This document shows positions 21,106-49,610 of a DNA stretch of 64,000 nucleotides, piece by piece. Each line of letters begins with the position of its first letter. Position 1 is the stretch's first letter. The stretch is taken from the IMG/VR virus record IMGVR_UViG_3300032770_000012, positions 37,194 through 101,193 of that record; one strand, written 5' to 3'. Below the pieces are notes generated by a model. That model saw only the letters and a list, made by a program, of their open reading frames with translations. It did no database searches and was not told the origin of the DNA. This DNA comes from a virus. The position numbers and the translations under genes are program-made.

Positions 21106-21281
21106 GCTTGGGCGATAAGATTGTCGATCATCCGAGTTTCGGAATGGTTGGAGCGAGTCATGTTAGCTCTACCGGCACAAAGGCCGAACAGGTCAAGACG
21201 ATTTTCGTAGAGCCTTACATTGCGCATACACGCGCCCTGAAACTAATCGAAAACAAGGAAGCAAAGACATGCCAGATATAA
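21102..21281 (+). CDS. Hypothetical protein, 59 aa
   Basis: ATGA overlap with the previous gene; overlaps the RecT-like gene start by 13 bp. Compact beta-rich start (GDKIVDHPSFGMVGASHVSS) and a basic helix. Not recognised. Confidence 0.55.
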   Translation: MSLGDKIVDHPSFGMVGASHVSSTGTKAEQVKTIFVEPYIAHTRALKLIENKEAKTCQI

Positions 21282-22867
21282 CGGTGCGGCAACCGCAGCA
21301 ACAGATTACCGTGGAGCGGGGAAAAGATATGTTTCCCGACGACGCCGAGCTTTCCAAGATGTGGGACATGGCGCGCGCCTTTTCAACCACGAATCTTGTG
21401 AGGCGGCATCTTCAGAACAATGCGCCTGCGATCTTTTACAGCCTGAACATCGGGAAAGAACTCGGTATCCACTGGAGCCATAGCCTGCGCAGTCTGTACA
21501 TTACAGACAAGGGTGAGGTCGGCGTAGAAGGTAACATCATCGGATCTTTGCTTTGGTCCAAAGGATTCAAGATCACAATCAACGAATCCACCGATAAGCG
21601 CGCCGAAGTAACGATCACGCGGCCCAATGACGGTGGCTCCCATACCGATTCATTCACCATCGAGGAAGCGGCCAAAGCTGGTCTTACACGCCGCTGGAAC
21701 CGGGATAAGCAGGAATACGTTGACGACTTCTCTTGGAAAGCGTACCCCAAGGACAAGCTCTATTGGCGCGCCCTGATGCGAACCGCCCGGCGTGTCGCCG
21801 TCGATGTGATGTACGGACTTTATCTTGACGATGAACTTCGCGAGTCCGAGCGCGCCGAACGTGATGCGGCGCTAGCGTCTGGAAACGGAATGCCGTCCGA
21901 TTCGCAGTCGGAACAACTCGAAGCAGCCAACCAGTATTACGTCGGGAAGAAACAGCCATCCGTGGAAGCCGAAGCCGAGGCCCATATTGTTTCAGCCGAG
22001 CCCGCGCCGCCCGCTGGTTCCAATGCCGAATTTTCGCAAGCCGCCAAGGAACGTGCGGCTGCTAACAAGAAACCGGAAGCGCCTGCTACAACTGCGTCGT
22101 CTCCTGATAGTGGTTCGCAGGCCGCTCCGGTCGATCCGGGGAAGGGTCCTGGCGGGCTAACCGGGACGCAGTCACCTTCCCCGGAATCAGAACCTTCTAA
22201 GCCCGCCGCCGATCAGGGCATGGCTGCGGCTGTGAAGGCCAAGATTTTGGAGTTGACCGACAAATGGCCCACGCTATCGCCCGAAGTCGCTAAGCAGAAA
22301 CTTCAGCAGGCCGTGAAGGGATGGCACGGAGTCAACCGGCTTCCTACCGACCCCAAGGCGTATCTGTCTCCGCTTGCCGCCATTGAGTGCGCCATGAAGT
22401 TCGAAGGCGGCGTGATCGATCAACTACTGAAGCGGGAACCTGCGCAGTTTGGCAAAGCAGCCAAGACCGCTTTCGATCAGGTCAATGCGAAGATGGCCGA
22501 CTGGAAATGGCCGGGTCCGGTGCGGGCGCTGGCACTGGAGGTTTGGTACCTCCGCATGAGCCCGCTGGAGAGCGATGAGTTTATTGATTGGATTCAGAAT
22601 ACCCTTGAGATCTCCGGTCTGCCCGAGAAGGATTTGGCACCGTTCTTTGAGTGCGCCCTGATTTCCCGCCAATGTTTCCGGCTGGTGTTGCTATCGCGCA
22701 AGCTGAATCTGCCCGTCTCGGAGTTAGCAGGATCTTTCTTGCGGGATCAGCCGCATGAGGAGCGCGCTCTTACCAACTGGCTGGACGGTCTGGAAAAGCA
22801 GGACACCATCAAGACCGAGGATGACGCTCCTACCGATTCCCCGCAAGAAGCGCTGCCCTGGGAGTGA
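21269..22867 (+). CDS. RecT-like single-strand annealing protein
   Basis: 532 aa. Residues about 25-200 follow the RecT pattern: an N-terminal helix, YSLNIGKELGIHWSHSLRSL, YITDKGEVGVEGNIIGSLLW, FTIEEAAKAGLTRR, and YPKDKLYWRALMRTARRVAV. A Pro/Ala/Ser-rich linker (about 225-320) joins a second helical domain ending in an acidic tail (EALPWE), similar to the SSB-like acidic tips that recruit replication proteins. It anneals complementary ssDNA during recombination. The PD-(D/E)XK nuclease at 24247 would supply the resection. Confidence 0.8.
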   Translation: MPDITVRQPQQQITVERGKDMFPDDAELSKMWDMARAFSTTNLVRRHLQNNAPAIFYSLNIGKELGIHWSHSLRSLYITDKGEVGVEGNIIGSLLWSKGFKITINESTDKRAEVTITRPNDGGSHTDSFTIEEAAKAGLTRRWNRDKQEYVDDFSWKAYPKDKLYWRALMRTARRVAVDVMYGLYLDDELRESERAERDAALASGNGMPSDSQSEQLEAANQYYVGKKQPSVEAEAEAHIVSAEPAPPAGSNAEFSQAAKERAAANKKPEAPATTASSPDSGSQAAPVDPGKGPGGLTGTQSPSPESEPSKPAADQGMAAAVKAKILELTDKWPTLSPEVAKQKLQQAVKGWHGVNRLPTDPKAYLSPLAAIECAMKFEGGVIDQLLKREPAQFGKAAKTAFDQVNAKMADWKWPGPVRALALEVWYLRMSPLESDEFIDWIQNTLEISGLPEKDLAPFFECALISRQCFRLVLLSRKLNLPVSELAGSFLRDQPHEERALTNWLDGLEKQDTIKTEDDAPTDSPQEALPWE

Positions 22868-22870
22868 TCG

Positions 22871-23281
22871 GTGCCAATCCTTTGCTCGTCCTTCATCAAG
22901 TACGCATGGGACTCTCGCCCTGGGTCAGGTCATTATACTGCGTTCCAGCTTGAGGCCGTATTCGATCCCAAACGGAGCGTCTGGTTGTGGCAAGAGGTCC
23001 GGGAGCACACACAGACTCAGATCAAAGACCCGGATAAGCTTTCTGCTGTCTGTTCGAGTTTGGGTCCGCTGATCTTGGATGTTCATCCCTTACAGCCGGT
23101 GAAACCCGAGCAGTTAGAGTTTCTTGGCAGCGATGAGGCCCGAGAACTCGCCATGCGTATCCTGATGGGGATCGGACCTAAAACCGAACCGGAGAAAGAT
23201 TGGTGGGATCGTCCAGATCTGGACAGCCGCACGCAGCGGCTGAAGCTGGCGAATCATCCTCGATTCAAGGTGAACGCATGA
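22871..23281 (+). CDS. Paralog family member 7, 136 aa, GTG start
   Basis: Beta-rich N-terminal region (TAFQLEAVFDPKRSVWLWQE) and the family C-terminal block (VKPEQLEFLGSDEARELAMR, ILMGIG), then an extra basic tail partly encoded by a GTCCAGATCTGGAC palindrome (23211-23224). It lies 3.3 kb from the tandem array, after the RecT-like gene. Confidence 0.65.
   Translation: MPILCSSFIKYAWDSRPGSGHYTAFQLEAVFDPKRSVWLWQEVREHTQTQIKDPDKLSAVCSSLGPLILDVHPLQPVKPEQLEFLGSDEARELAMRILMGIGPKTEPEKDWWDRPDLDSRTQRLKLANHPRFKVNA
23211..23224. repeat. Dispersed palindrome, GTCCAGATCTGGAC
   Basis: Perfect 14-bp form near the 3' end of paralog member 7. Confidence 0.9.
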
Positions 23282-23454
23282 AACCGCTGGTCCTTTTGGC
23301 GCTCCTTGCTTTCTCCGCCTGTCCCGGTTCGGTGCCATGTCCGATTGACGGCCTGAGTTCTACCTGGACCGGCAGGAGTCATTACGTCGATGGCGTCATG
23401 ATCGGCGCTTACCGCTGCCCGCGAGGGCACACGTTTGAGGTTGCATGCCCGTGA
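23278..23454 (+). CDS. Small putative lipoprotein, 58 aa
   Basis: Signal-peptide-like start (KPLVLLALLAFSAC) with a lipobox-type FSAC at residues 12-15, so Cys15 may be lipidated after export. The mature part has four more cysteines. ATGA overlap with the upstream gene. A spanin-type lipoprotein is imaginable next to the 2-TM gene, but the position in a recombination operon argues against a lysis role. Confidence 0.5.
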   Translation: MKPLVLLALLAFSACPGSVPCPIDGLSSTWTGRSHYVDGVMIGAYRCPRGHTFEVACP

Positions 23455-23618
23455 AGAGGATCATTCGGGACATAGCGCTCGTTATCGCTTCAGTAGAGAT
23501 TTTGGTTTTGGTGTGCTTCAGCATCTTCCCGTCTCCTCTACCGGAATACGCAGTTTTGTCGGTTGGGTTTATCGGCGTGATAGCGGCTATTTTGGCTGGT
23601 AGCGGGAGGCACGAATGA
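23445..23618 (+). CDS. Two-helix membrane peptide, 57 aa
   Basis: Hydrophobic segments at about residues 8-27 and 34-52 separated by a Pro-rich turn. Overlaps the lipoprotein gene by 10 bp. Topology recalls small holins or membrane anchors; no further evidence. A 12-codon ORF (23615-23650) links it to the next gene. Confidence 0.5.
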   Translation: MPVKRIIRDIALVIASVEILVLVCFSIFPSPLPEYAVLSVGFIGVIAAILAGSGRHE

Positions 23619-23642
23619 CTTTTGAGCAGCGCAGGGGAGACA

Positions 23643-23882
23643 ATGGCTGACACTTTCCCGATGGTCAATGTGTCATCGAGCAACATCCAGGCGGTCGGCT
23701 GGCAGGCCGAACGCGAGGGCGATGATGTCGGCACTCTGCGAGTAGCCTTTCGCAATGGCGCGGTGTTCGATTACTCGGATGTGCCGGGCGTGATTTACCA
23801 ACAACTGCTGGAATCCCCGAGCGTTGGCAGCTACTTTCACGGCAATATCAAATCGCATTACAACAGCACCAAGGTATCCTGA
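23643..23882 (+). CDS. KTSC-domain protein, 79 aa
   Basis: MVNVSSSNIQAVGWQAE, RVAFRNGAVFDYSDVPGVIY, and SVGSYFHGNIKSHY match the KTSC fold (named from the lysyl-tRNA synthetase C-terminus), widespread in phages and thought to bind nucleic acid. GGGGAGACA precedes the ATG. The TGA overlaps the PilZ gene start. Confidence 0.85.
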   Translation: MADTFPMVNVSSSNIQAVGWQAEREGDDVGTLRVAFRNGAVFDYSDVPGVIYQQLLESPSVGSYFHGNIKSHYNSTKVS

Positions 23883-24250
23883 TGGCCCGCGATCTACTGT
23901 GCCAGAAATGCGCTCCGTTGGCTATCGAGAGGCGTTCGAAGATCCGCTTTCCGCTAGAAATGCGGTTGTCCTATAGCGCTATCCGAAGACATTCTGGATT
24001 CGGGAAAACAGTTGACGTGTCCAGTGCTGGAATGCTCCTCGAACTGGATGGCTTTGTTCCTGCCGGTACGAAGTTGCACCTCCTGCTAGAATGGCCCTGC
24101 CTGTTGGATTGGAGCGTCCCCATGAGCATGACGGTTGAGACGAGGGTCGTCCGCTGTATCGGGAACCGTGCGGCAGTACGGCTGCTTTCTTATGAGTTCA
24201 AGACTCGCAGGGGCCCGCTCCTCGCGCGAGAGAGAGCGATAGCCTCATGA
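23882..24250 (+). CDS. PilZ-domain protein
   Basis: 122 aa. An RxxxR-type motif (ERRSKIRFPL, about residues 17-26) and DVSSAGMLLELDG (about 48-60, the D/N-x-S-x-x-G motif) are the two c-di-GMP-binding signatures of PilZ. The LEWPCLLDWSVPMSMTVETR and VVRC blocks complete the beta-barrel, in a form common in Acidobacteriota. A phage-borne PilZ could read or titrate host cyclic di-GMP. It sits in the recombination operon between KTSC and nuclease genes. Confidence 0.75.
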   Translation: MARDLLCQKCAPLAIERRSKIRFPLEMRLSYSAIRRHSGFGKTVDVSSAGMLLELDGFVPAGTKLHLLLEWPCLLDWSVPMSMTVETRVVRCIGNRAAVRLLSYEFKTRRGPLLARERAIAS

Positions 24251-24867
24251 TCGAATTCGACCCGGTTCGTCACGAGTACTTCTTGGATGACCGCCAGCTT
24301 TCCTCATTAAGCGAAGTGCGCCGGGCGGCTGGACTGGATGAATTCTTCAATATCGACCAGCAGTATCGGGATCGCGGCAATGCGGTTCACTACGCGACAA
24401 CTCTAATCGATCAGGGCGAGTATGATCCCGATACGACGCATCCCGAGGTCCATCGGTTTGCTTCCGGTTATCTGGCGTTCAAGCGCGAGCACCGGTTTGA
24501 GATTGAGGGTTCCGAGGAGATAGTGTGGTGCCCCTCCATGGGGGTTGCCGGGCGGTTGGACCGGCGCATCGTCATGACAGGGGAGCGGATCATCCTGGAT
24601 TTCAAAAGCGGTTCTCTACCGGCGCTGGTCGGCATCCAACTTAACGGCTACAAGTACTTGCTGGCATCCTCGCATTCGATCAAGGCCGATAAAGTGCGCT
24701 GCCTGTTGCTGCCGGGGGATGGCTCTTACCGGCTCGTGAGCCATGTCACGCTGGGAGGAAAGTCCGTCTCGCTCGATGACCCAATGTGGCTCCAGGCTTT
24801 TTTTGCGGCAACCAAATTGTACGGCCTTCGTAAGCAGGCCGGTCTGATCGGGAACGGAGCGCGATGA
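24247..24867 (+). CDS. PD-(D/E)XK nuclease (RecB/Cas4-like)
   Basis: 206 aa. DRGNAVHYATTLIDQG supplies the N-terminal His motif; GVAGRLDRRIVMTGERIIL and DFKSGS give the core Asp...D-x-K residues (about residues 99-122); GIQLNGYKYLL is the QxxxY helix of RecB-type exonucleases. It likely resects DNA ends for the RecT-like protein 1.4 kb upstream. ATGA overlaps with PilZ before and the zinc ribbon after. Confidence 0.8.
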   Translation: MIEFDPVRHEYFLDDRQLSSLSEVRRAAGLDEFFNIDQQYRDRGNAVHYATTLIDQGEYDPDTTHPEVHRFASGYLAFKREHRFEIEGSEEIVWCPSMGVAGRLDRRIVMTGERIILDFKSGSLPALVGIQLNGYKYLLASSHSIKADKVRCLLLPGDGSYRLVSHVTLGGKSVSLDDPMWLQAFFAATKLYGLRKQAGLIGNGAR

Positions 24868-25040
24868 CCTGCCAGCGCTGTGGCTCGACCCGCGTATTGA
24901 ACGTGAGGTTTGAGCATCGGATCGCAGGTAGCTCTCTTGCGCAGCATTGTCTTGACTGCGATACGGTTTACAACGAACGCACCTGGAAGGAAGGAAATCA
25001 GTGGCATCCAGTAAAGAACTCATTGGAACTTTCACCATAG
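24864..25040 (+). CDS. Zinc-ribbon protein, 58 aa
   Basis: CQRCGSTRVLN and CLDCDTVYNERTW give a CxxC...CxxC zinc ribbon. It overlaps the nuclease stop (ATGA), and its 3' end overlaps the next gene by 40 bp, where the GTG start lies. Possible accessory of the nuclease. Confidence 0.6.
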   Translation: MTCQRCGSTRVLNVRFEHRIAGSSLAQHCLDCDTVYNERTWKEGNQWHPVKNSLELSP

Positions 25041-25747
25041 ACCTGACCAAATCCTCATCGTCCATTACGGTGGACTTGGCGAGCACAGAACTGGCTAGCC
25101 GGGAACTTCAGGTCAATAGCGAGCAGGCGTTTGAAAATGCGGCGGCGCTGGTCGCCGTCTGCGCGAAGCGGGCCGAACAGGTCGCATCATTCTGGGAACA
25201 CGACAGAGATTTGGCGCACCAACTGCACCGCAGCATCACCGGAAAGATCTCCGCCCTACAGGCTCCTTGGATCAAGATTCGGGCCAGCCTTGAGGCCAAG
25301 ATGAAGGCGTGGCGTACCGCCCAGGAGCGCGAGCGCCAGAAGCGCGAGCAGGAGGAGCGCCAGCGTGCCGACGAGGAGCGCCGCAAGGTCGAGGAGCAAG
25401 CCCGAGCGCTCAAGATGGCCGGTGAGTACGGATTGGCTAAACAGGTCGTCCAGGAGGCCGAGACCGCCATTGCGCCGAGTTCGGTCCAGCCGTTTGCGCC
25501 CAAGTCTGAATCGGTCACCGAAAAGTGGCCCTGGATCGGCGAAGTCAACGATCTCATGGCGCTCATCAAGGCGATTGCCGAGGGCACGGTTCCGTTAGAA
25601 TATGAAATCAAGGGCGAGATGCGACCCCTGCTCAACGTCGATCAGAATGTGTTGAACCATCTGGCGCGGACCAGACAGGGCGATTTCTCTATCCCTGGAT
25701 GCAGCGCCAAGCAGGATCTTAGATTCTCCCGAAAGGCCGGAGTATGA
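25001..25747 (+). CDS. Coiled-coil phage protein, GTG start
   Basis: 248 aa, GTG 25001 with GGAAGGAA upstream. A long charged coiled coil spans about residues 85-150 (RTAQERERQKREQEERQRAD). The C-terminal third (AIAEGTVPLEYEIKGEMRPL) resembles coiled-coil proteins often encoded beside RecT-type genes in phages; role unknown. Confidence 0.65.
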   Translation: MASSKELIGTFTIDLTKSSSSITVDLASTELASRELQVNSEQAFENAAALVAVCAKRAEQVASFWEHDRDLAHQLHRSITGKISALQAPWIKIRASLEAKMKAWRTAQERERQKREQEERQRADEERRKVEEQARALKMAGEYGLAKQVVQEAETAIAPSSVQPFAPKSESVTEKWPWIGEVNDLMALIKAIAEGTVPLEYEIKGEMRPLLNVDQNVLNHLARTRQGDFSIPGCSAKQDLRFSRKAGV

Positions 25748-25935
25748 GCGAGCCAACATACAGGGACCTCTTTGACAAATACGGCAGTGAAGCGGCCATG
25801 GTTGACGCGTACTTGGATCACAGGATGACCGACGAAGAAGAAACGAGTGTACGTTTGCGTATGGGCACAGCATTCAACACGGCGGTTCTTCGTGCCGTTT
25901 GTGATCGATTGACCGCAAGCAAGGCCGATGCCTAG
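25744..25935 (+). CDS. Small helical protein, 63 aa
   Basis: ATGA overlap with the coiled-coil gene. All-helical, acidic (YRDLFDKYGSEAAMVDAYLD, RMTDEEETSVRLRMGTAF). Not recognised. Confidence 0.6.
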   Translation: MSEPTYRDLFDKYGSEAAMVDAYLDHRMTDEEETSVRLRMGTAFNTAVLRAVCDRLTASKADA

Positions 25936-25978
25936 TCTTAGTCGGTCGAGTCCATTCCGTTTGTCTCCTCGGTAGACT

Positions 25979-28822
25979 ATGGCGGACTATCTTAGACCCT
26001 ACCAGCGCCGCGAACTCATCAAGGCGTACCGATCCTGGAAAGCGGGCTGCACGCGGCAACTATGGTGTCTTCCAACGGGGGCGGGGAAAACTTTATGTGC
26101 CGCGATCATCCCGCAGTGGAAGATTCTGGGAGAAAAGGGCCAATTGTGGTTCCTGGTCCACCTGGACGAACTTGTAGGCCAAGCGGAGCGCACCTTTAAA
26201 CGGATCAACCCAACGCTGCGCGTCGGAATCGAAAAAGCCGAGCAATACGCAAGTCCAGATCTGGATATTGTCATCGCGTCTATACCGAGCGTGGAGCGTA
26301 ATGACTGCGAGCGCATCCGGCGCTTTGATCGCCGCCGCATCCGAGCCGTCGTATGCGACGAAGCTCATCACCTAGTCAGCAATCAGCACCGTGCCGTCGT
26401 GACGGCCTTAGGGGTCATGAAGGGCGATCCCGATGCCGATCCTTCCCGTTTGTTCGCGGGCATCACAGCGACGCCCCTGAGGAGTTCCGGGGAGGGCCTA
26501 GAGGCATTCTTTGACGAGATCACGATCTCGGTCGGGATGCGCGAACTGATGACAACTGGCCCAGAGATCAACGGCTCGATCTATCCCTGGTTGGCGGACG
26601 CTGTTGCTTACCAGATCAACACGGACATCGATCTCGATCAGGTCAAGATTCGGGCGGGCGACTTCATGCCGAAGGATCTTGGCCGTCTCATCAATACGCC
26701 GGAGCGCAATGCTTTGGTTGTGCGCAAATACCAGGAATTCGGATTGGGTTTGCCGGGATTGGCTTTTACTTGCAGCATCGAGCATTCGCATGATCTGGCG
26801 AGTGCCTTCAATACCGAGGGTCTCCCTGCCGTCGCCGTCAGCGGCAACACCTCTCGGCGCGAGCGCGACTCGATCATCGCCCGGTACAACACTGGCGAGA
26901 TAAAGGTGCTCACCAGTTGCTCTGTATTCGTGGAGGGATTCGATCTGCCGAGAGCTACCGTGAATGTACTGGCAAAACCGACAAGGAGTAACTTGCTTTA
27001 TTGTCTTGATGGGGAAACCGAGATCTTGTCTTCCGAAGGATGGAAAACGATTGGCAATATTATTCCTGGAGATATCGTATGCGCTGTTGAGCCTGAGGAT
27101 CTTAGGGCCCAATGGGTCCCCGCCGATTCAGTAATCGAACGGATAGTTTGTCCAGAGGAGAAAATGGCGAGCCTTGTGAGCGCCCGCATGAATTTTCGGG
27201 TTTCCGATAAACATCGCATGTTGTGTTTTGATCGGCATGGGAATCATCCAGATTTCGTACTCGCAGAACAACTTGCAGTTTGCTCGCATTCTTATAAACT
27301 TCCGGTTGCCGCCATCTCTTCTTTCCCGGACGCTCCGTTGACCGATGACGAACTGCGGCTCATCGGATGGTTCTTGACCGATGGATGTCACAACCGGAAG
27401 AATAATGCCATCAACATCTGTCAATCGATCACTCATCCTGAATATATAACAGAGATCAGGTCAATCCTCGACTCCTGCCGGATTCGATACGGAGAAGCCA
27501 AGCGAACGGGTTCCAATTTTGGGTCCAAATATGCGGACCGCATTGTCTTTTACTTCAGCAAAGGAGACCCGCGCAAAATCTCTGAGCGTAACAAGCGTGG
27601 ATGGTCCTATTTATCCGCGTACCTAGACAAATCCTTTACTGATTCACTGATGGCCGTATCTGACAGACAGCTTGGAGTGATGCTTGAGGCTATGAACAAA
27701 GGCAACGGTTCTAAGTGCCAAAAGATTACTTGGACGCGGCGCAGCTACGACATTTGTTTTGGCAACAAGAGGTTGGCCGAGCGCATTCAAATCGCCTGCA
27801 TAACGCATGGATTCGCTTGCAATCTGTCGATTATTCCCGCTTCCGAAAAGCGCAAGAGCGAATTTTACATGCTCCATATCAAAAAGAGGGCCTTTAGTAT
27901 CGTTGGTGGCACAACCCTATCACATGATCGACCAACGCTTGCGTTGGCGGACCCAAAACCTTCAGAACGAGTTTGGTGCGTCTCCAATCGAATCGGCACT
28001 ATTGTGACCCGCAGGAAAGGCAAGGTCTGTATTGTCGGTAACTGCCAAATGCTCGGACGTACCTTTCGGCCTTACCCGGCACCGGAAGACTACTTACGCA
28101 TGGTCGCGGCTGGTCAGCGGCCCGATTACATCAAGCCTCATGCGATCATCCTGGATTTTGCCGACAACTGCGGTCGCCACGCCGGGGCCTTAATGCAACT
28201 TCCAACGCTCTACGGCCTGCGCCCGGACTTCAACATGCGCGGCAAGAGCGTCACCGAGGTCGTGGAGGAAATCGAGCAGTTGCTTGAAGTCCAGCCCGCC
28301 ATCGATCTTCAGCACTGCCGGTCGATCGAGGATGTCCGCTCCCAGGTCGATTCGGTCGATCTGTTTGCCGTGCCGGTGATCCCGGAGAAGATCCGCAAGC
28401 TGGCAAAGTTTCACTGGTTCCAGCTTTGGAGTGATTCCTATCAGTTGCGAACTTTGGTCGGAACTGTCGAAATTCGTCAGAACTTGCTTGGGGCCTACGA
28501 GATCTACGTATCGAGGAACGGGCAGCGCGTCTTACGTAACAGCCTCAGCGATCTGCGCGAGGCCGTTCAATTCGGAGAGAGTCTCGTACCGCCCGAGGAG
28601 CGGACATTGCATCGTAAGTCGGCCAAGTGGTTGTCAAAAGAGCCGACGTTCGCCCAATGCGATCTCTTGAGGAATAAAGATAACCGTTTCCGCGCTCGTT
28701 TTGAATCCAGCAAAGAACTCTTCCGACACGTTATGTGCGAATTTCGAAACGGAAACAAAAGCTATTCTCGTGGTGGAATTTCCAGGGCCATAGATCGGAT
28801 GAGGCTTTCCGGCTTGAAATAG
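25979..28822 (+). CDS. SF2 DEAD/DEAH-box helicase containing an intein
   Basis: 947 aa, 600 after splicing. Motif I LPTGAGKT (about residues 29-36), motif II CDEAHH (about 125), motif III ITATPL (about 163), motif V VFVEGFDLPRA and motif VI QMLGRTFRP. The intein sits between Tyr341 and Gln689-containing motif VI, right at the catalytic site. The helicase would unwind DNA or RNA in the recombination operon. Its last 20 residues (YSRGGISRAIDRM) recur, diverged, at 30187-30258 beyond the next cassette. Confidence 0.9.
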   Translation: MADYLRPYQRRELIKAYRSWKAGCTRQLWCLPTGAGKTLCAAIIPQWKILGEKGQLWFLVHLDELVGQAERTFKRINPTLRVGIEKAEQYASPDLDIVIASIPSVERNDCERIRRFDRRRIRAVVCDEAHHLVSNQHRAVVTALGVMKGDPDADPSRLFAGITATPLRSSGEGLEAFFDEITISVGMRELMTTGPEINGSIYPWLADAVAYQINTDIDLDQVKIRAGDFMPKDLGRLINTPERNALVVRKYQEFGLGLPGLAFTCSIEHSHDLASAFNTEGLPAVAVSGNTSRRERDSIIARYNTGEIKVLTSCSVFVEGFDLPRATVNVLAKPTRSNLLYCLDGETEILSSEGWKTIGNIIPGDIVCAVEPEDLRAQWVPADSVIERIVCPEEKMASLVSARMNFRVSDKHRMLCFDRHGNHPDFVLAEQLAVCSHSYKLPVAAISSFPDAPLTDDELRLIGWFLTDGCHNRKNNAINICQSITHPEYITEIRSILDSCRIRYGEAKRTGSNFGSKYADRIVFYFSKGDPRKISERNKRGWSYLSAYLDKSFTDSLMAVSDRQLGVMLEAMNKGNGSKCQKITWTRRSYDICFGNKRLAERIQIACITHGFACNLSIIPASEKRKSEFYMLHIKKRAFSIVGGTTLSHDRPTLALADPKPSERVWCVSNRIGTIVTRRKGKVCIVGNCQMLGRTFRPYPAPEDYLRMVAAGQRPDYIKPHAIILDFADNCGRHAGALMQLPTLYGLRPDFNMRGKSVTEVVEEIEQLLEVQPAIDLQHCRSIEDVRSQVDSVDLFAVPVIPEKIRKLAKFHWFQLWSDSYQLRTLVGTVEIRQNLLGAYEIYVSRNGQRVLRNSLSDLREAVQFGESLVPPEERTLHRKSAKWLSKEPTFAQCDLLRNKDNRFRARFESSKELFRHVMCEFRNGNKSYSRGGISRAIDRMRLSGLK
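26253..26266. repeat. Dispersed palindrome, GTCCAGATCTGGAT
   Basis: One mismatch, inside the helicase gene. Confidence 0.75.
27002..28042 (+). other. Intein in helicase motif VI
   Basis: 347 aa from Cys342 (CLDGETEILSSEGWKTIGNI) to Asn688 before Cys+1. Block B (ARMNFRVSDKHRML) and two LAGLIDADG-like motifs (RLIGWFLTDGC and LGVMLEAMNKG) are visible. The C-terminal end is IVGN: Gly replaces the usual penultimate His, a known but less common variant that needs a compensated splicing mechanism. Confidence 0.88.
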
Positions 28823-29071
28823 GAGCGAACTCCTCGTCCGCTCCTCAATTGGGCCGTACCGATCCATACCGCACCATTGCCGGGCGATCCTTATCCAGCC
28901 AAGCCGGATCAAGCCCGACCAAGCCATTACCACCCCCTGCCGAGCCGGGCCTGACGCCGCCCCTGCACGCCGAACCCCGACCAGCACGACCGTACCGCAG
29001 CCAACAACGCCAGCGCCTTGCCTGTCCTGATCGTGCCTTGCCACTCCCGAACGAACCACGGTTTATCCCGT
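28823..29071 (-). repeat. G-rich GGN(2-4) array, left arm of cassette (G strand = minus)
   Basis: About 240 bp with no gene in which CC doublets recur every 4-6 bases on the plus strand, meaning GG doublets on the minus strand. It lies just 3' of the leftward gene 29072..29689, so it would be its G-rich 3' UTR. A mirror array lies at 29930-30186. Confidence 0.7.
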
Positions 29072-29689
29072 TTACTCTACGACAAATTTGACTACCTGAA
29101 ATCTCCCAAAGCTGGGCCGGAAATCTCCGACGCCGACCAGACGTCCAGCGGATTGGAATACCTCGTTCAACAACTGATCCGAGATGTACTCCGGTAGTAC
29201 GCACTCTAGTCTGACCTTGATCCTCCAGCCAATCTGCATTGCTGGCCTGCTCCGCGTGATCGCGGACTTTTGAATCACTACTCGCCTACGGTCTAGGTAG
29301 TCCCAGTCCTTGACGCCCAACGAGCAGTACTCGTCCAGCGCGATGATGCCAGCCTTGAAGATGTCCATGGCGGACTTGCGCGGAGACCTCGGGTCCTGCT
29401 TGAATTTGGCGGCACCGATGATGGACATTCTGAAATACTCGCTCGGGATCGCCAGATTTCCTTTGGAATCGCGGTAGACGTAACTCTCGGTGTCGTCGGT
29501 CTTCTTGGCCTTGCTGCCTTTGGAGGCTCTGGCTTTTTCCTCCACTCCTTCCACGCTCCATCGATGGAACAGGAATGGGCTGGTCCCAACAATTTCGGCC
29601 TGGACCACATAGGGTTCGCTGAATGAAATGATCTTGCCGCCATCATTGCTGACAGGGGCCAAAACGGTGGCCTGATTTGATTTTGCCAT
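29072..29689 (-). CDS. Conserved phage protein, 205 aa
   Basis: EPYVVQAEIVGTSPFLFHRW start, IPSEYFRMSIIGAAKFKQ middle and GVGDFRPSFGRFQVVKF end. This pattern recurs in phage genomes near recombination genes, but I know no proven function. The alternating strands recall RNA- or ssDNA-binding folds; this is speculation. It is expressed leftward from the divergent promoter at 29709-29737 and ends in the G-rich array. Confidence 0.65.
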   Translation of the reverse strand: MAKSNQATVLAPVSNDGGKIISFSEPYVVQAEIVGTSPFLFHRWSVEGVEEKARASKGSKAKKTDDTESYVYRDSKGNLAIPSEYFRMSIIGAAKFKQDPRSPRKSAMDIFKAGIIALDEYCSLGVKDWDYLDRRRVVIQKSAITRSRPAMQIGWRIKVRLECVLPEYISDQLLNEVFQSAGRLVGVGDFRPSFGRFQVVKFVVE

Positions 29690-29708
29690 GTTTATACCTC
29701 GTATACCG

Positions 29709-29751
29709 ATACTACTTTAGTCTTGCAGTATAGTCAAGACTTGATATACTG
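29709..29751. promoter_or_regulatory. Divergent promoters with shared palindromic operator
   Basis: Leftward: TTGACT (29737-29732), 17 bp, TAGTAT (29714-29709). Rightward: TTGCAG (29723-29728), 16 bp, TATACT (29745-29750), only 6 bp before the ATG at 29757. CAGTATA (29726-29732), TCAAG, CTTGA and TATACTG (29745-29751) form a nearly perfect palindrome over both promoters, which fits control by the RHH protein. Confidence 0.7.
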
Positions 29752-29756
29752 TTCAC

Positions 29757-29918
29757 ATGAAAGATTCGGATCGAGAGTTTTTGCACTTTCTGATACCAAA
29801 AAGGCTCCTCGAACGGATCGAGGAGTTTCGGTTTAAGAATCGTTTCCCATCAAGAGCGAGAGCGATCACTTGGCTCTTAGACTGGGCTCTATCCAACAAT
29901 CCTAAACCCGAACAGTGA
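29757..29918 (+). CDS. Arc-like ribbon-helix-helix protein, 53 aa
   Basis: FLHFLIPKRLLERIEEFRFK then SRARAITWLLDWALSN gives the strand-helix-helix order of small DNA-binding repressors. It should be translated from a leaderless mRNA, and likely represses the divergent promoter pair through the palindrome at 29726-29751. It is followed by the second G-rich array. Confidence 0.7.
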   Translation: MKDSDREFLHFLIPKRLLERIEEFRFKNRFPSRARAITWLLDWALSNNPKPEQ

Positions 29919-29929
29919 TTGATTTCGTG

Positions 29930-30186
29930 GACCGCCGAGGTTTACAGCGCTGCGGCAGTGCGGGGCGTAGGTTAGGCCGTCCATGGTACGTAAACGGCAT
30001 GGTCGTCTGATGCGAGGTCTGGCGGGGCGGTCTGAGATTAGGTTCGTTGCGGTCGTGCGTGGAAATCAGCGGTAAGGCGGGCAGATGTTGGGTACGCTAA
30101 GGCAAGGCTCTGTATGGCCCGGTATTGTTCGCAATGGTTATCCGGGGAATGGCAGACATAGGCTGTGTTAGCAGTGGCATGGAAAG
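29930..30186 (+). repeat. G-rich GGN(2-4) array, right arm of cassette (G strand = plus)
   Basis: About 255 bp without a gene, with GG doublets every few bases on the plus strand, i.e. in the 3' UTR of the rightward RHH gene. Same texture as 28823-29071 but in inverted orientation. Confidence 0.7.
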
Positions 30187-30258
30187 GTCTATCGTAACTA
30201 CTCGCGCGGCGGGATATCACGCGCCATTGATAGAATCAAGTTGGCGAAGGAAGGCTAG
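30187..30258 (+). pseudogene. Remnant copy of the helicase 3' end
   Basis: In frame, VYRNYSRGGISRAIDRIKLA then KEG and TAG. It aligns with the helicase end FRNGNKSYSRGGISRAIDRM (28740-28822) but differs at many bases. The next gene starts one base after this TAG with AAGGAAGG as ribosome-binding site, so this was probably the original helicase end, displaced when the cassette arrived with its own copy. Confidence 0.7.
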
Positions 30259-30459
30259 ATGATCCGCCACTTTCTCGCTCAAAACTCGTGCTACCGTCGC
30301 TGGAGCGGAGGAATCTGGTTCTACGTCAATCCAGAACCATTCCCCTATATGTTCTTCTGGCAAAGAGAGAAACCGAGCCACATCGAGCGTCTAATCGAAG
30401 TCGAAGCCGATGGCGTGGATATAACCTGGATTTACAAGGGAGTGATTCCGCAGGACTAA
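30259..30459 (+). CDS. Hypothetical protein, 66 aa
   Basis: ATG directly follows the TAG of the helicase-end remnant. Aromatic-rich (RRWSGGIWFYVNPEPFPYMF), beta-rich. Formerly coupled to the helicase, it may now depend on readthrough from the cassette. Convergent with 30456..30668. Confidence 0.55.
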   Translation: MIRHFLAQNSCYRRWSGGIWFYVNPEPFPYMFFWQREKPSHIERLIEVEADGVDITWIYKGVIPQD

Positions 30460-30668
30460 CTGCGGGTCTTCTTCCGCCCTTTCCGGCGCTCCGCGATGGT
30501 CCTCATTGCCTTCGCGAAGGCCGCCCTCTTTGCTTCCTTGCCGCCCTTGGCTAAACCGCGTTTGATCTTTGATGGAGTCGCGGCCCCGAATTTACCCTCG
30601 GTCCCGCGCCGTTTCATAGAAGCCTTAGCCCGCTTTAGAAAATAACCGCTCTTCTCTCTTTTTGCCAT
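30456..30668 (-). CDS. Small Lys/Arg-rich phage protein, 70 aa
   Basis: KSGYFLKRAKASMKRRGTEG, KFGAATPSKIKRGLAKGGKE and AAFAKAMRTIAERRKG form a pattern seen in many phage genomes (basic, DNA-binding-like, function unknown). Start at 30668 lies inside the end of the HNH gene (44-bp overlap). Confidence 0.65.
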   Translation of the reverse strand: MAKREKSGYFLKRAKASMKRRGTEGKFGAATPSKIKRGLAKGGKEAKRAAFAKAMRTIAERRKGRKKTRS

Positions 30669-31404
30669 CTGTCCTACCTCCTTGTGTCCTACCGAACCAA
30701 GCCGACATGCATCTCTTAGAGCAAAAATCAGCGAATCCTTTATGCTTTGATCGCTTCGCCATGAATGTTACGCCGCATTCAAAACATTGCATAATACTGC
30801 GCGCTTTAATGCCTTTGGCCTTTCCGCTGCACTTTTTCGAACAGTGCATTTGCGCCCTTTTTGGGGCCATGAATTCGCGGTTGCATATTGGACAGAGTTT
30901 TGGAAATTTAGGCTTTCTGTGCGCCCTGAGCAGGTACCCCACCTTTGGATGTTCCAAGACATGGCAATCAACGCAGAGCAGTTCGCCGTTACTAATATCG
31001 AACCTTAGTTCGGGGTGAAACGCCCACGGCTGCTTATGGTGGGCATGCATTTCGATATCGGATCGACCGCATCGAACGCACTCACGGTCTCGCTCCGTAA
31101 CCGCTCGCACCCACCGTTTGTATTCCGCCGTGTGACCAGTAGGACGATTAGTTGAACGTTTACGGCTAGCGTACATGCAAGCACGGGAACAGAACTGCTT
31201 TCTTTCTTGACCCTTCGTGTAGACCTTGATCTTTCCACACTGTTGGCATCTTAAGAACGTTATCGTAACCGTGCGTTTTTTGTGTTTGCTTGAACACTTC
31301 CGCGAACAGAACCGGGCACCATCAGCAATTGCGGACGGGTACCGCACAACTGTTGTGCCACAAGCGTCACATTGGATCGCTACGGCTTTTCCGCCCTTTG
31401 CCAT
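30625..31404 (-). CDS. HNH endonuclease with multiple zinc knuckles
   Basis: 259 aa. Two N-terminal zinc fingers (CDACGTTV..FCSRKC; CQQCGKI..FCSRAC), an HNH core YKRWVRAVTERDRECVRCGR, HAHHKQPW and LLCVDCH (about residues 95-150), and further C-terminal fingers (CPICNREF..CSKKC; CFECGVTF..FCSKRC). Probably a nicking or homing nuclease. Confidence 0.85.
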   Translation of the reverse strand: MAKGGKAVAIQCDACGTTVVRYPSAIADGARFCSRKCSSKHKKRTVTITFLRCQQCGKIKVYTKGQERKQFCSRACMYASRKRSTNRPTGHTAEYKRWVRAVTERDRECVRCGRSDIEMHAHHKQPWAFHPELRFDISNGELLCVDCHVLEHPKVGYLLRAHRKPKFPKLCPICNREFMAPKRAQMHCSKKCSGKAKGIKARSIMQCFECGVTFMAKRSKHKGFADFCSKRCMSAWFGRTQGGRTDGKKREERLFSKAG

Positions 31405-48258: not shown

Positions 48259-49610
48259 GGGCGAACCTCCGGGGCTTTTACGGATGAGCGCCACAACTTC
48301 AGCATCCTCTCGATGGATTGCTTGCCGCGTTCATCATCGTAGTAAGGCCGGTAGCTCTTTCCGCCAGATTTAGCAGCCTCTTTGAGCCATTCGTTCTTTT
48401 GCGCGATCGAAGCCTTCTCGAATTGCTCTGGCGTCACACCTTTTGATTTCAGGTGCGCAATGATGGATTGATCCTTGGCGGTCGCGGCCACGTCCAATTG
48501 ACCGGCACGCTGAGCGGCCCACTCCGATAGTTCCTTAGACGAGCTGGGCTCGGGTACCTTGCTTGCAGGAACGCTTTTCTCCGTTGCGGCAGTTCCCCCT
48601 TCTGACAGCGGGCGCATTTGGGATGCCGTGCGGCTGGTGGACCCTTTTGGCGCGGCTGGAGCCGGTGGAGGCGGCTCGGGCTTGGGCGCTGGCGGGGGAA
48701 CGGTTGATGCTGAGCGCGGCGGCGGGGGCGGCGGAGGCGGAGGTTCTGGTCTTGGGCTAGGCGGGGGAACGGTTGATGCTGAGCGCGGTGGTGGTGCCGG
48801 TGGTGCTGGCTCTGGCTTGGGTATTGGCGCGGGCCGAATACTCGGCGACATGGGGGCAGGCTGCGGTTTGGCGGCTGCGGTTTGGCGCGGCGCTTTTAAT
48901 TGAGCCTGGAGTTCCTTGATCGCGGCGACGCGATCCCCGGCAGTAGATGGCGCTTTGCCATGAGTTTCCTCGAATAGCTTGAAGGCTAATTCGTCACGCC
49001 CTGATTTGGGAACTCCCTCCAGGGCTTCTCCAAATTGACCCCGCAGATGGTCTAGGACCTCCAGGGCCGTACCGCCTCCCGGCATCCTGCGGATTAGGAA
49101 TCTGGCTACGGCGTTCATCTTCGGCAGTTTGCTTACGACCGCCCTGGAAGCATCCGCAGCTTCTGTCGCTACTTTTCCACCCCGCTCCATGAGGCCACCG
49201 ATACCAGCTACCGCTCTGCCAGCGTAGGGCGCTCCAGACATGAACACGTCGTAGGCGGGACCAGTGTCTATATCGGAAACCGGGGCCTCGGGATGCTCTC
49301 GGTTATACTGCTCTACCATTGGGCTGGGTCCTGTCAGAGCCTTTCGGACGGTCTCCGCTCCGCGCTCGACGTACCCAATCGGCTCTGGCGTCATACGAAC
49401 GCTTGGGCGTGTCCCTCCGCGAGGCAGCGGACCAGACCAACCTGGAGCAATATCTTCTCGAACCATGGGCTGCACATCTACGAACTGAGCGTACTGCGGG
49501 TACTTGGCCTTGACCATACGACCAAGATCCACGTTCGAGATTCCTTCGTATGCTTTTGGGTATTTCTCTTTAACGAGTTTTCCCAAATCTTCGATGGTCT
49601 GTTGCGCCAT
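48255..49610 (-). CDS. Proline-rich virion-associated protein, 451 aa
   Basis: Helical N-terminal region (DLGKLVKEKYPKAYEGISNV, twice a similar K-x-K-Y-P unit), a central Pro/Ala-rich linker with two near-identical blocks (PPPRSASTVPPPSPRPEPPP and a second copy), and a C-terminal helical part. The K-x-K-YP motif is typical of phage internal/injection proteins. Located between structural genes. Confidence 0.6.
   Translation of the reverse strand: MAQQTIEDLGKLVKEKYPKAYEGISNVDLGRMVKAKYPQYAQFVDVQPMVREDIAPGWSGPLPRGGTRPSVRMTPEPIGYVERGAETVRKALTGPSPMVEQYNREHPEAPVSDIDTGPAYDVFMSGAPYAGRAVAGIGGLMERGGKVATEAADASRAVVSKLPKMNAVARFLIRRMPGGGTALEVLDHLRGQFGEALEGVPKSGRDELAFKLFEETHGKAPSTAGDRVAAIKELQAQLKAPRQTAAAKPQPAPMSPSIRPAPIPKPEPAPPAPPPRSASTVPPPSPRPEPPPPPPPPPRSASTVPPPAPKPEPPPPAPAAPKGSTSRTASQMRPLSEGGTAATEKSVPASKVPEPSSSKELSEWAAQRAGQLDVAATAKDQSIIAHLKSKGVTPEQFEKASIAQKNEWLKEAAKSGGKSYRPYYDDERGKQSIERMLKLWRSSVKAPEVRP

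What the first reader, a model, noticed from the sequence alone, without database searches (positions are those of the whole stretch)
28823..30258. Symmetric cassette: two divergent genes, each with a G-rich 3' array, inserted at a helicase 3' end that it replaced
The helicase ends with YSRGGISRAIDRM and a few residues at 28822. After a 1.36-kb cassette, 30187-30258 encodes YSRGGISRAIDRI and a TAG in frame, with the next gene's ribosome-binding site built into it. So the cassette seems to have landed in the helicase gene, bringing a diverged copy of its last codons and leaving the old end behind. The cassette has a shared operator in the middle, a leftward conserved phage gene and a rightward RHH gene. 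Each gene is followed by about 250 bp of noncoding sequence in which GG recurs every 4-6 bases of the sense strand. Gene-end replacement is known for integrative elements; a symmetric RHH cassette with sense G-rich 3' arrays is not one I know.
Basis: partly seen in the sequence, partly recalled or inferred. Interest (0 to 1): 0.87.

Follow-up and report, generated by a model that had tools for sequence, protein, structure and literature searches.

The report
Phage RNA-guided VIPR interference cassette
This phage carries a VIPR system, a recently described relative of CRISPR in which a small RAMP protein uses RNAs made of GGYNN repeats to find DNA, here with two guide arrays pointing in opposite directions and placed where the end of a neighbouring helicase gene has been duplicated.

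Summary
The leftward "conserved phage gene" (29072-29689, -) is a Vipr protein: its profile finds the solved SUSP1 Vipr (PDB 36pp, E 8.9e-10), it shares phrog_4652 with SUSP1 Vipr, and its predicted fold matches Csm3/Cas7 RAMPs. The two "G-rich arrays" are runs of GGYNN pentamers (about 41 units at 28853-29060, -; about 52 at 29926-30188, +). They are the two best-scoring such tracts in the 101-kb phage contig, and 0 of 1000 shuffles reach either. All 41 Vipr relatives examined have a sense GGYNN array beside the gene. This is the anatomy of VIPR (PMC13142463, 2026): a RAMP protein plus vrRNAs whose NN pairs are read with a one-base skip to bind DNA and silence competitors.

Uncommon here: a second array on the opposite strand behind a divergent ribbon-helix-helix gene (absent from the other 41 loci), long tail-less arrays, loose GGY. 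The helicase-end duplication is real (12/12 residues; 2/12 wobble bases shared); codon usage suggests the right copy is the native stump, but no cassette-free allele was found. No target was found; guide expression is untested. Verdict: new member of a known kind, unusual layout.

The parts
29072..29689 (-). vipr gene, 205 aa (RAMP-family RNA-binding protein)
   Evidence: hmmsearch against PDB 36pp 'SUSP1 Vipr protein' E 8.9e-10; hhalign to SUSP1/LESphi2 Vipr 98.9%, E 2.1e-17; phrog_4652 as for SUSP1 Vipr; AlphaFold model matches Csm3/Cas7; invariant GxGDxRPxxGR motif
28853..29060 (-). left guide array, about 41 GGYNN units with two one-base slips, sense 3' of vipr
   Evidence: Viterbi parse; score 68.5, 0/1000 shuffles, rank 1 of the contig
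29926..30188 (+). right guide array, about 52 pentamer units (55% GG, 47% GGY), sense 3' of the RHH gene, opposite strand to vipr
   Evidence: Viterbi parse; score 43.1, 0/1000 shuffles, rank 2 of the contig
29757..29918 (+). small ribbon-helix-helix regulator gene, 53 aa, divergent from vipr; probable accessory gene
   Evidence: phrog_4738 transcriptional repressor E 8e-6; no Pfam hit; fold search weak, includes the NikR RHH domain at E 2.6; RHH genes recur next to vipr in L005, L126, L123 and L003
29690..29756 (.). shared divergent promoter/operator region; inverted repeats at 29719-29751
28821..28845 (-). hairpin directly after the left array; possible vrRNA tail or terminator
   Evidence: 10-bp stem; z -3.2 for 28800-28860 minus strand, 0 of 200 shuffles fold as well
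25979..28822 (+). SF2 (RadD/ResIII-type) helicase gene; its 3' end carries the left YSRGGISRAIDR copy at 28763-28798; intein inside
   Evidence: phrog_16 E 2.7e-58, ResIII; left copy atypical codon usage
30187..30258 (+). orphan second copy of the helicase 3' end (YSRGGISRAIDRIKLAKEG*, homology from 30199); likely the native stump, kept with the RBS of the next gene
30259..30459 (+). 66-aa gene that the native helicase stop would have abutted (TAGATG)
   Evidence: sequence; no family, no match in phage records

Best explanation
A phage-borne VIPR system. The Vipr protein coats vrRNAs processed from two GGYNN arrays, one in the 3' part of the vipr transcript and one in the 3' part of the divergent RHH transcript. 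The GGY triplets hold the RNA on Vipr, and the NN pairs read double-stranded DNA as NN-x-NN-x (one-base skip), so that the complex sits on genes of competing phages or satellites and blocks their transcription. The RHH protein probably represses both divergent promoters through the central palindromes, so effector and guides are switched on together. The cassette probably reached this phage as a unit with a donor's helicase 3' end, leaving the recipient's helicase end behind as an untranslated stump. Shown here: Vipr homology, arrays, operator repeats, duplicated end. Taken from PMC13142463: guide use, skip rule, repression. Inferred: RHH role, one transcript per array, the insertion history.
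For: Protein: PDB 36pp SUSP1 Vipr E 8.9e-10, hhalign 98.9%, shared phrog_4652, Csm3/Cas7 fold. Arrays: top two tracts of the contig, strand-specific, period 5. Context: all 41 relatives examined carry a sense GGYNN array beside vipr, some with discrete vrRNAs and a repeated tail (L128). No array segment of 8 units matches its own phage under the one-base skip beyond 14/16, as expected for guides aimed elsewhere. Published mechanism. Stump.
Against: No natural target found in IMG/VR with four guide seeds. Right array is loose (47% GGY) and could be decaying. Arrays are far longer than the 9-16 units published for single vrRNAs, and no clear tail follows the right one. No vap1 (phrog_5926) homologue beside it. 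The subfamily is far from the experimentally studied type II SUSP1, so the skip rule is carried over, not shown.
Confidence: 0.9

Rival explanations
1. The arrays are DNA-level binding sites (iterons or a centromere-like array) for the RHH protein, as in omega/ParR partition or repressor systems.
For: An RHH gene lies next to the arrays; RHH proteins can bind repeated sites (general knowledge).
Against: 41 of 41 relatives of the other gene (Vipr) have the array, while RHH genes were recognised beside only a few. Units are 5 bp with two free bases and strand-asymmetric; the palindromes lie in the promoter instead.
Confidence: 0.04
2. The arrays are G-quadruplex or other structural elements acting on transcription or replication.
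For: GG every 5 bases permits two-tetrad motifs: 32 overlapping G2 motifs in the left array.
Against: No G3 motif in either array and only 2 G2 motifs in the right one; the third position is held as pyrimidine; tight link to a RAMP gene.
Confidence: 0.02
3. The VIPR core is real but the right array is a decaying remnant and the RHH gene an unrelated neighbour, so the 'symmetric cassette' is an accident.
For: 47% GGY in the right array against 55-85% in most relatives; no other locus has an opposite-strand array beside vipr.
Against: About 38 units in the right array stay in one phase without a slip; departures are mostly TGY/GCN/TCN rather than G-to-A decay; L003 is just as loose (37%) over 83 units; divergent RHH genes recur.
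Confidence: 0.25
4. The helicase-end repeat is not an insertion scar but a coincidence of a shared short motif or a local duplication.
For: Only 12-13 residues are shared; flanking residues differ.
Against: 12/12 residues identical in frame, ending at a stop that abuts the next start codon, with 10 of 12 wobble bases different: two long-separated coding copies, not a recent duplication.
Confidence: 0.12

Closest known systems
VIPR systems (Viral Interference Programmable Repeat), type II of Escherichia phage SUSP1 (PMC13142463; PDB 36pp)
   Same: Vipr RAMP homologue with the same invariant residues; adjacent GGY/NN tandem repeats; small phage-borne locus; DNA-binding-type companion gene
   Different: 26-28% identity to the type II Viprs compared here; two arrays of 41 and 52 units on opposite strands without clear tails, against discrete tailed vrRNAs of 9-16 units; RHH gene instead of vap1; looser GGY
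VIPR-like loci of this subfamily in IMG/VR and GTDB genomes (L002, L003, L005, L126, L128 and others)
   Same: 48-66% identical Vipr in most, sense GGYNN array alongside in all
   Different: None of the 41 has an opposite-strand array beside vipr; the nearest (L002, L003) have one sense array of 59 and 83 units
Class 1 CRISPR Cas7/Csm3 RAMPs
   Same: Predicted fold (Foldseek E 3e-4 to 1e-2) and RNA-binding role
   Different: No CRISPR array, no other cas genes
Gene-end replacement by integrative elements and homing-type exchange
   Same: A gene's 3' end is supplied by the insert and the old end remains outside
   Different: No integrase in the cassette; att-like repeats not established; the two ends are only 67% identical over 36 bases

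Membership tests
VIPR system | Vipr protein, a minimal RAMP homologue | tested here: met
VIPR system | Tandem repeats of conserved GGY alternating with variable NN next to vipr | tested here: met
   GGY 55% (left) and 47% (right), weaker than in most relatives
VIPR system | Encoded mainly by phages or proviruses, minimal locus | tested here: met
   IMG/VR virus contig of 101 kb with replication and recombination genes
VIPR system | Vipr-accessory (vap) gene | tested here: inconclusive
   no vap1 (phrog_5926) alongside; a divergent RHH gene is the candidate; definitions of vap2-6 are in a supplement that could not be read
VIPR system | Structured 3' tail after the repeat tract | tested here: inconclusive
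   hairpin after the left array (z -3.2), none beyond chance after the right
VIPR system | vrRNA transcribed and bound by Vipr | not testable with these tools
   needs small-RNA sequencing and pull-down
VIPR system | NN bases match foreign DNA under the one-base-skip rule | tested here: inconclusive
   no self-match; no target in IMG/VR for four seeds
CRISPR-Cas class 1 | CRISPR repeats and spacers plus several cas genes | tested here: not met
   arrays are 5-base units; neighbours are RHH, helicase and HNH genes
Integrative element with gene-end replacement | Integrase or recombinase inside the element | tested here: not met
   only vipr and RHH lie between the two helicase ends
Integrative element with gene-end replacement | Empty site in a relative | tested here: inconclusive
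   no related helicase found

The most novel reading that the evidence does not exclude
A VIPR variant with two opposed, separately promoted guide arrays under one RHH switch, in which the RHH transcript carries its own guide set; and VIPR cassettes spread between phages by replacing the end of a conserved recombination gene, perhaps helped by the neighbouring HNH endonuclease gene or the helicase intein.
Probability: 0.25. Interest if true: 0.72.

Novelty: new member of a known kind. Interest (0 to 1): 0.62.

Why it matters
VIPR was described only in 2026 and is proposed to precede CRISPR. This locus shows the system in a diverged Vipr subfamily with a regulatory layout, two opposed arrays behind one palindromic operator, that is not in the main text of that paper. 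The helicase stump gives a concrete, testable clue to how such cassettes enter phage genomes. It also gives phrog_4652, listed as unknown function, a likely role.

Tried and rejected
Target search: one 20-base skip-rule pattern gave 0 hits in IMG/VR; three 16-base seeds gave 49, 23 and 18 hits whose flanking units match no better than chance. The arrays match nothing in the own contig convincingly (best 14/16 over 8 units, 17/20 over 10). Guides of L128 (Alicyclobacillus, same subfamily) matched nothing in 41 genomes of its family at up to 3 mismatches, so the skip rule was not confirmed for this subfamily. Helicase relatives: none by C-terminal or N-terminal patterns, by YSRGGISRAID codons, or in the other VIPR phages. 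Apparent opposite-strand arrays in L131 and L134 lie in overlapping coding frames. Rfam found no known RNA in the cassette and no ribozyme in relatives. RHH fold prediction from one sequence was indecisive. A general screen for duplicated gene ends at other VIPR loci gave mostly low-complexity noise and its output was cut, so it is not conclusive. Host inference from DnaB and ATPase genes gave only distant, mixed matches.

Full report
What is there. The window is part of a 101,193-base IMG/VR virus contig. The reported genes, coordinates and repeats check out. GG doublets recur at exactly 5 bases in both tracts. A pentamer parser finds a left array at 28853-29060 on the minus strand and a right array at 29926-30188 on the plus strand. 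They are the best two such tracts in the whole contig, with scores 68.5 and 43.1 against 14.2 for the next, and none of 1000 dinucleotide shuffles of either comes near. The opposite strands score at chance.

What the leftward gene is. Pfam and NCBIfam know nothing of it. PHROG 4652 ('unknown function') matches at 4e-20. Thirteen relatives in IMG/VR nearly all showed GGYNN tracts beside the gene. A literature search with these features led to PMC13142463, which describes VIPR: a RAMP-family Vipr protein with vrRNAs of alternating GGY and NN, where the NN pairs recognise double-stranded DNA with one skipped base per unit and repress competing phages. Membership was then tested. A profile of the window protein and its relatives finds PDB chain 36pp_D, 'SUSP1 Vipr protein', at E 8.9e-10. 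Profile comparison with the Vipr of SUSP1 and its homologue in LESphi2 gives 98.9% over 162 columns. The SUSP1 Vipr gene itself matches phrog_4652 at E 1e-96. The AlphaFold model (mean pLDDT 70, so moderate) finds Csm3 and other Cas7-type RAMPs as the leading PDB matches.

Array and gene go together. In 41 loci with a related vipr (12 from IMG/VR, two phage records, 27 from GTDB genomes), every one has a GGYNN tract next to the gene on its sense strand (L003 is looser and appears). They are not all independent: several Phycisphaerales rows and the L009/L112/L113 group are near-identical. L128 shows discrete vrRNA-like units of 13-16 repeats followed by a repeated tail; the nearest relatives of the window, L002 and L003, have long arrays of 59 and 83 units.

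What is unusual. In the window the second array lies on the opposite strand, downstream of a divergent 53-aa RHH gene. None of the 41 relatives has this; two apparent cases are GG-rich coding frames. RHH genes do recur beside vipr: divergent in L005, L126 and L123, co-directional in L003. The window's own RHH call rests on phrog_4738 (E 8e-6) and sequence pattern, since Pfam gives nothing and the fold search is weak. The 67 bp between the divergent starts hold two perfect 7-bp inverted repeats over the promoter-like elements, which suits an RHH repressor acting on both units. That is inference.

The helicase end. YSRGGISRAIDR occurs at the end of the helicase and again at 30199-30234, in frame to a TAG that abuts the ATG of the next gene. 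All 12 residues agree, while 10 of 12 wobble bases differ. So the two copies most likely diverged as coding sequence before they came together; this is not a fresh duplication. The right copy has the codon usage of the rest of the helicase (mean log score 0.106, equal to the helicase mean), and the left copy is in the lowest 2.4% of helicase windows, with usage falling off over roughly the last 130 codons. The samples are small (18-19 codons). The simplest history is that the cassette arrived with a donor's helicase end and left the native end behind, kept because it holds the ribosome-binding site of the next gene. No related helicase, with or without the cassette, was found, so this stays a hypothesis. 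An intein in the helicase and an HNH gene at 30625-31404 are possible agents of such an exchange, without direct evidence.

Targets. The NN bases of both arrays were decoded under the one-base skip. The own contig has no convincing match. Four seeds found no convincing target in IMG/VR. Guides of L128 found none in 41 genomes of its family. The skip rule for this subfamily is therefore carried over from SUSP1 and not shown here.

Judgement. The cassette is a VIPR system (confidence 0.9). The remaining novelty is the opposed two-array layout and the possible gene-end replacement. The supplement of the VIPR paper, with the seven types and vap2-6, could not be read, so a layout like this one may already be listed there.

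Noticed in passing
27002-28042: Probable intein in the helicase, inserted at motif VI (LLY^C...GN^CQMLGRTFRP), about 347 aa, lower GC than its host gene; a LAGLIDADG-like stretch is only weakly recognised (E 0.21).
   Followed up: partly
30625-31404: Free-standing HNH endonuclease gene (phrog_1271, E 5e-28) about 370 bp beyond the helicase stump; could have driven homing-type exchange of the region.
   Followed up: no
21269-28822: Recombination module: RecT-like annealing protein (21269-22867), two exonuclease-like genes (24247-24867, 25001-25747) and the helicase precede the VIPR cassette. Several relatives have an ATPase-like gene directly downstream of vipr (for example L009, L011, L012, L013; seen in the translated sequence only).
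   Followed up: partly
L115-L122, L124, L125, L136: Closely related vipr loci, mostly with three or more array tracts each, recur in many Phycisphaerales/Planctomycetota genomes, two of them in one genome (BQMO01).
   Followed up: no
L128:3602-4750: Alicyclobacillus fructus locus with at least three discrete vrRNA-like units sharing a tail (GCTTCnCCGG...AAAACAGCCGG); a good set for defining the tail structure of this subfamily.
   Followed up: partly
48646-48891: GG-rich pentamer-like stretch opposite a large minus-strand gene; scores 13.6 and looks like codon repetition, not a guide array.
   Followed up: partly
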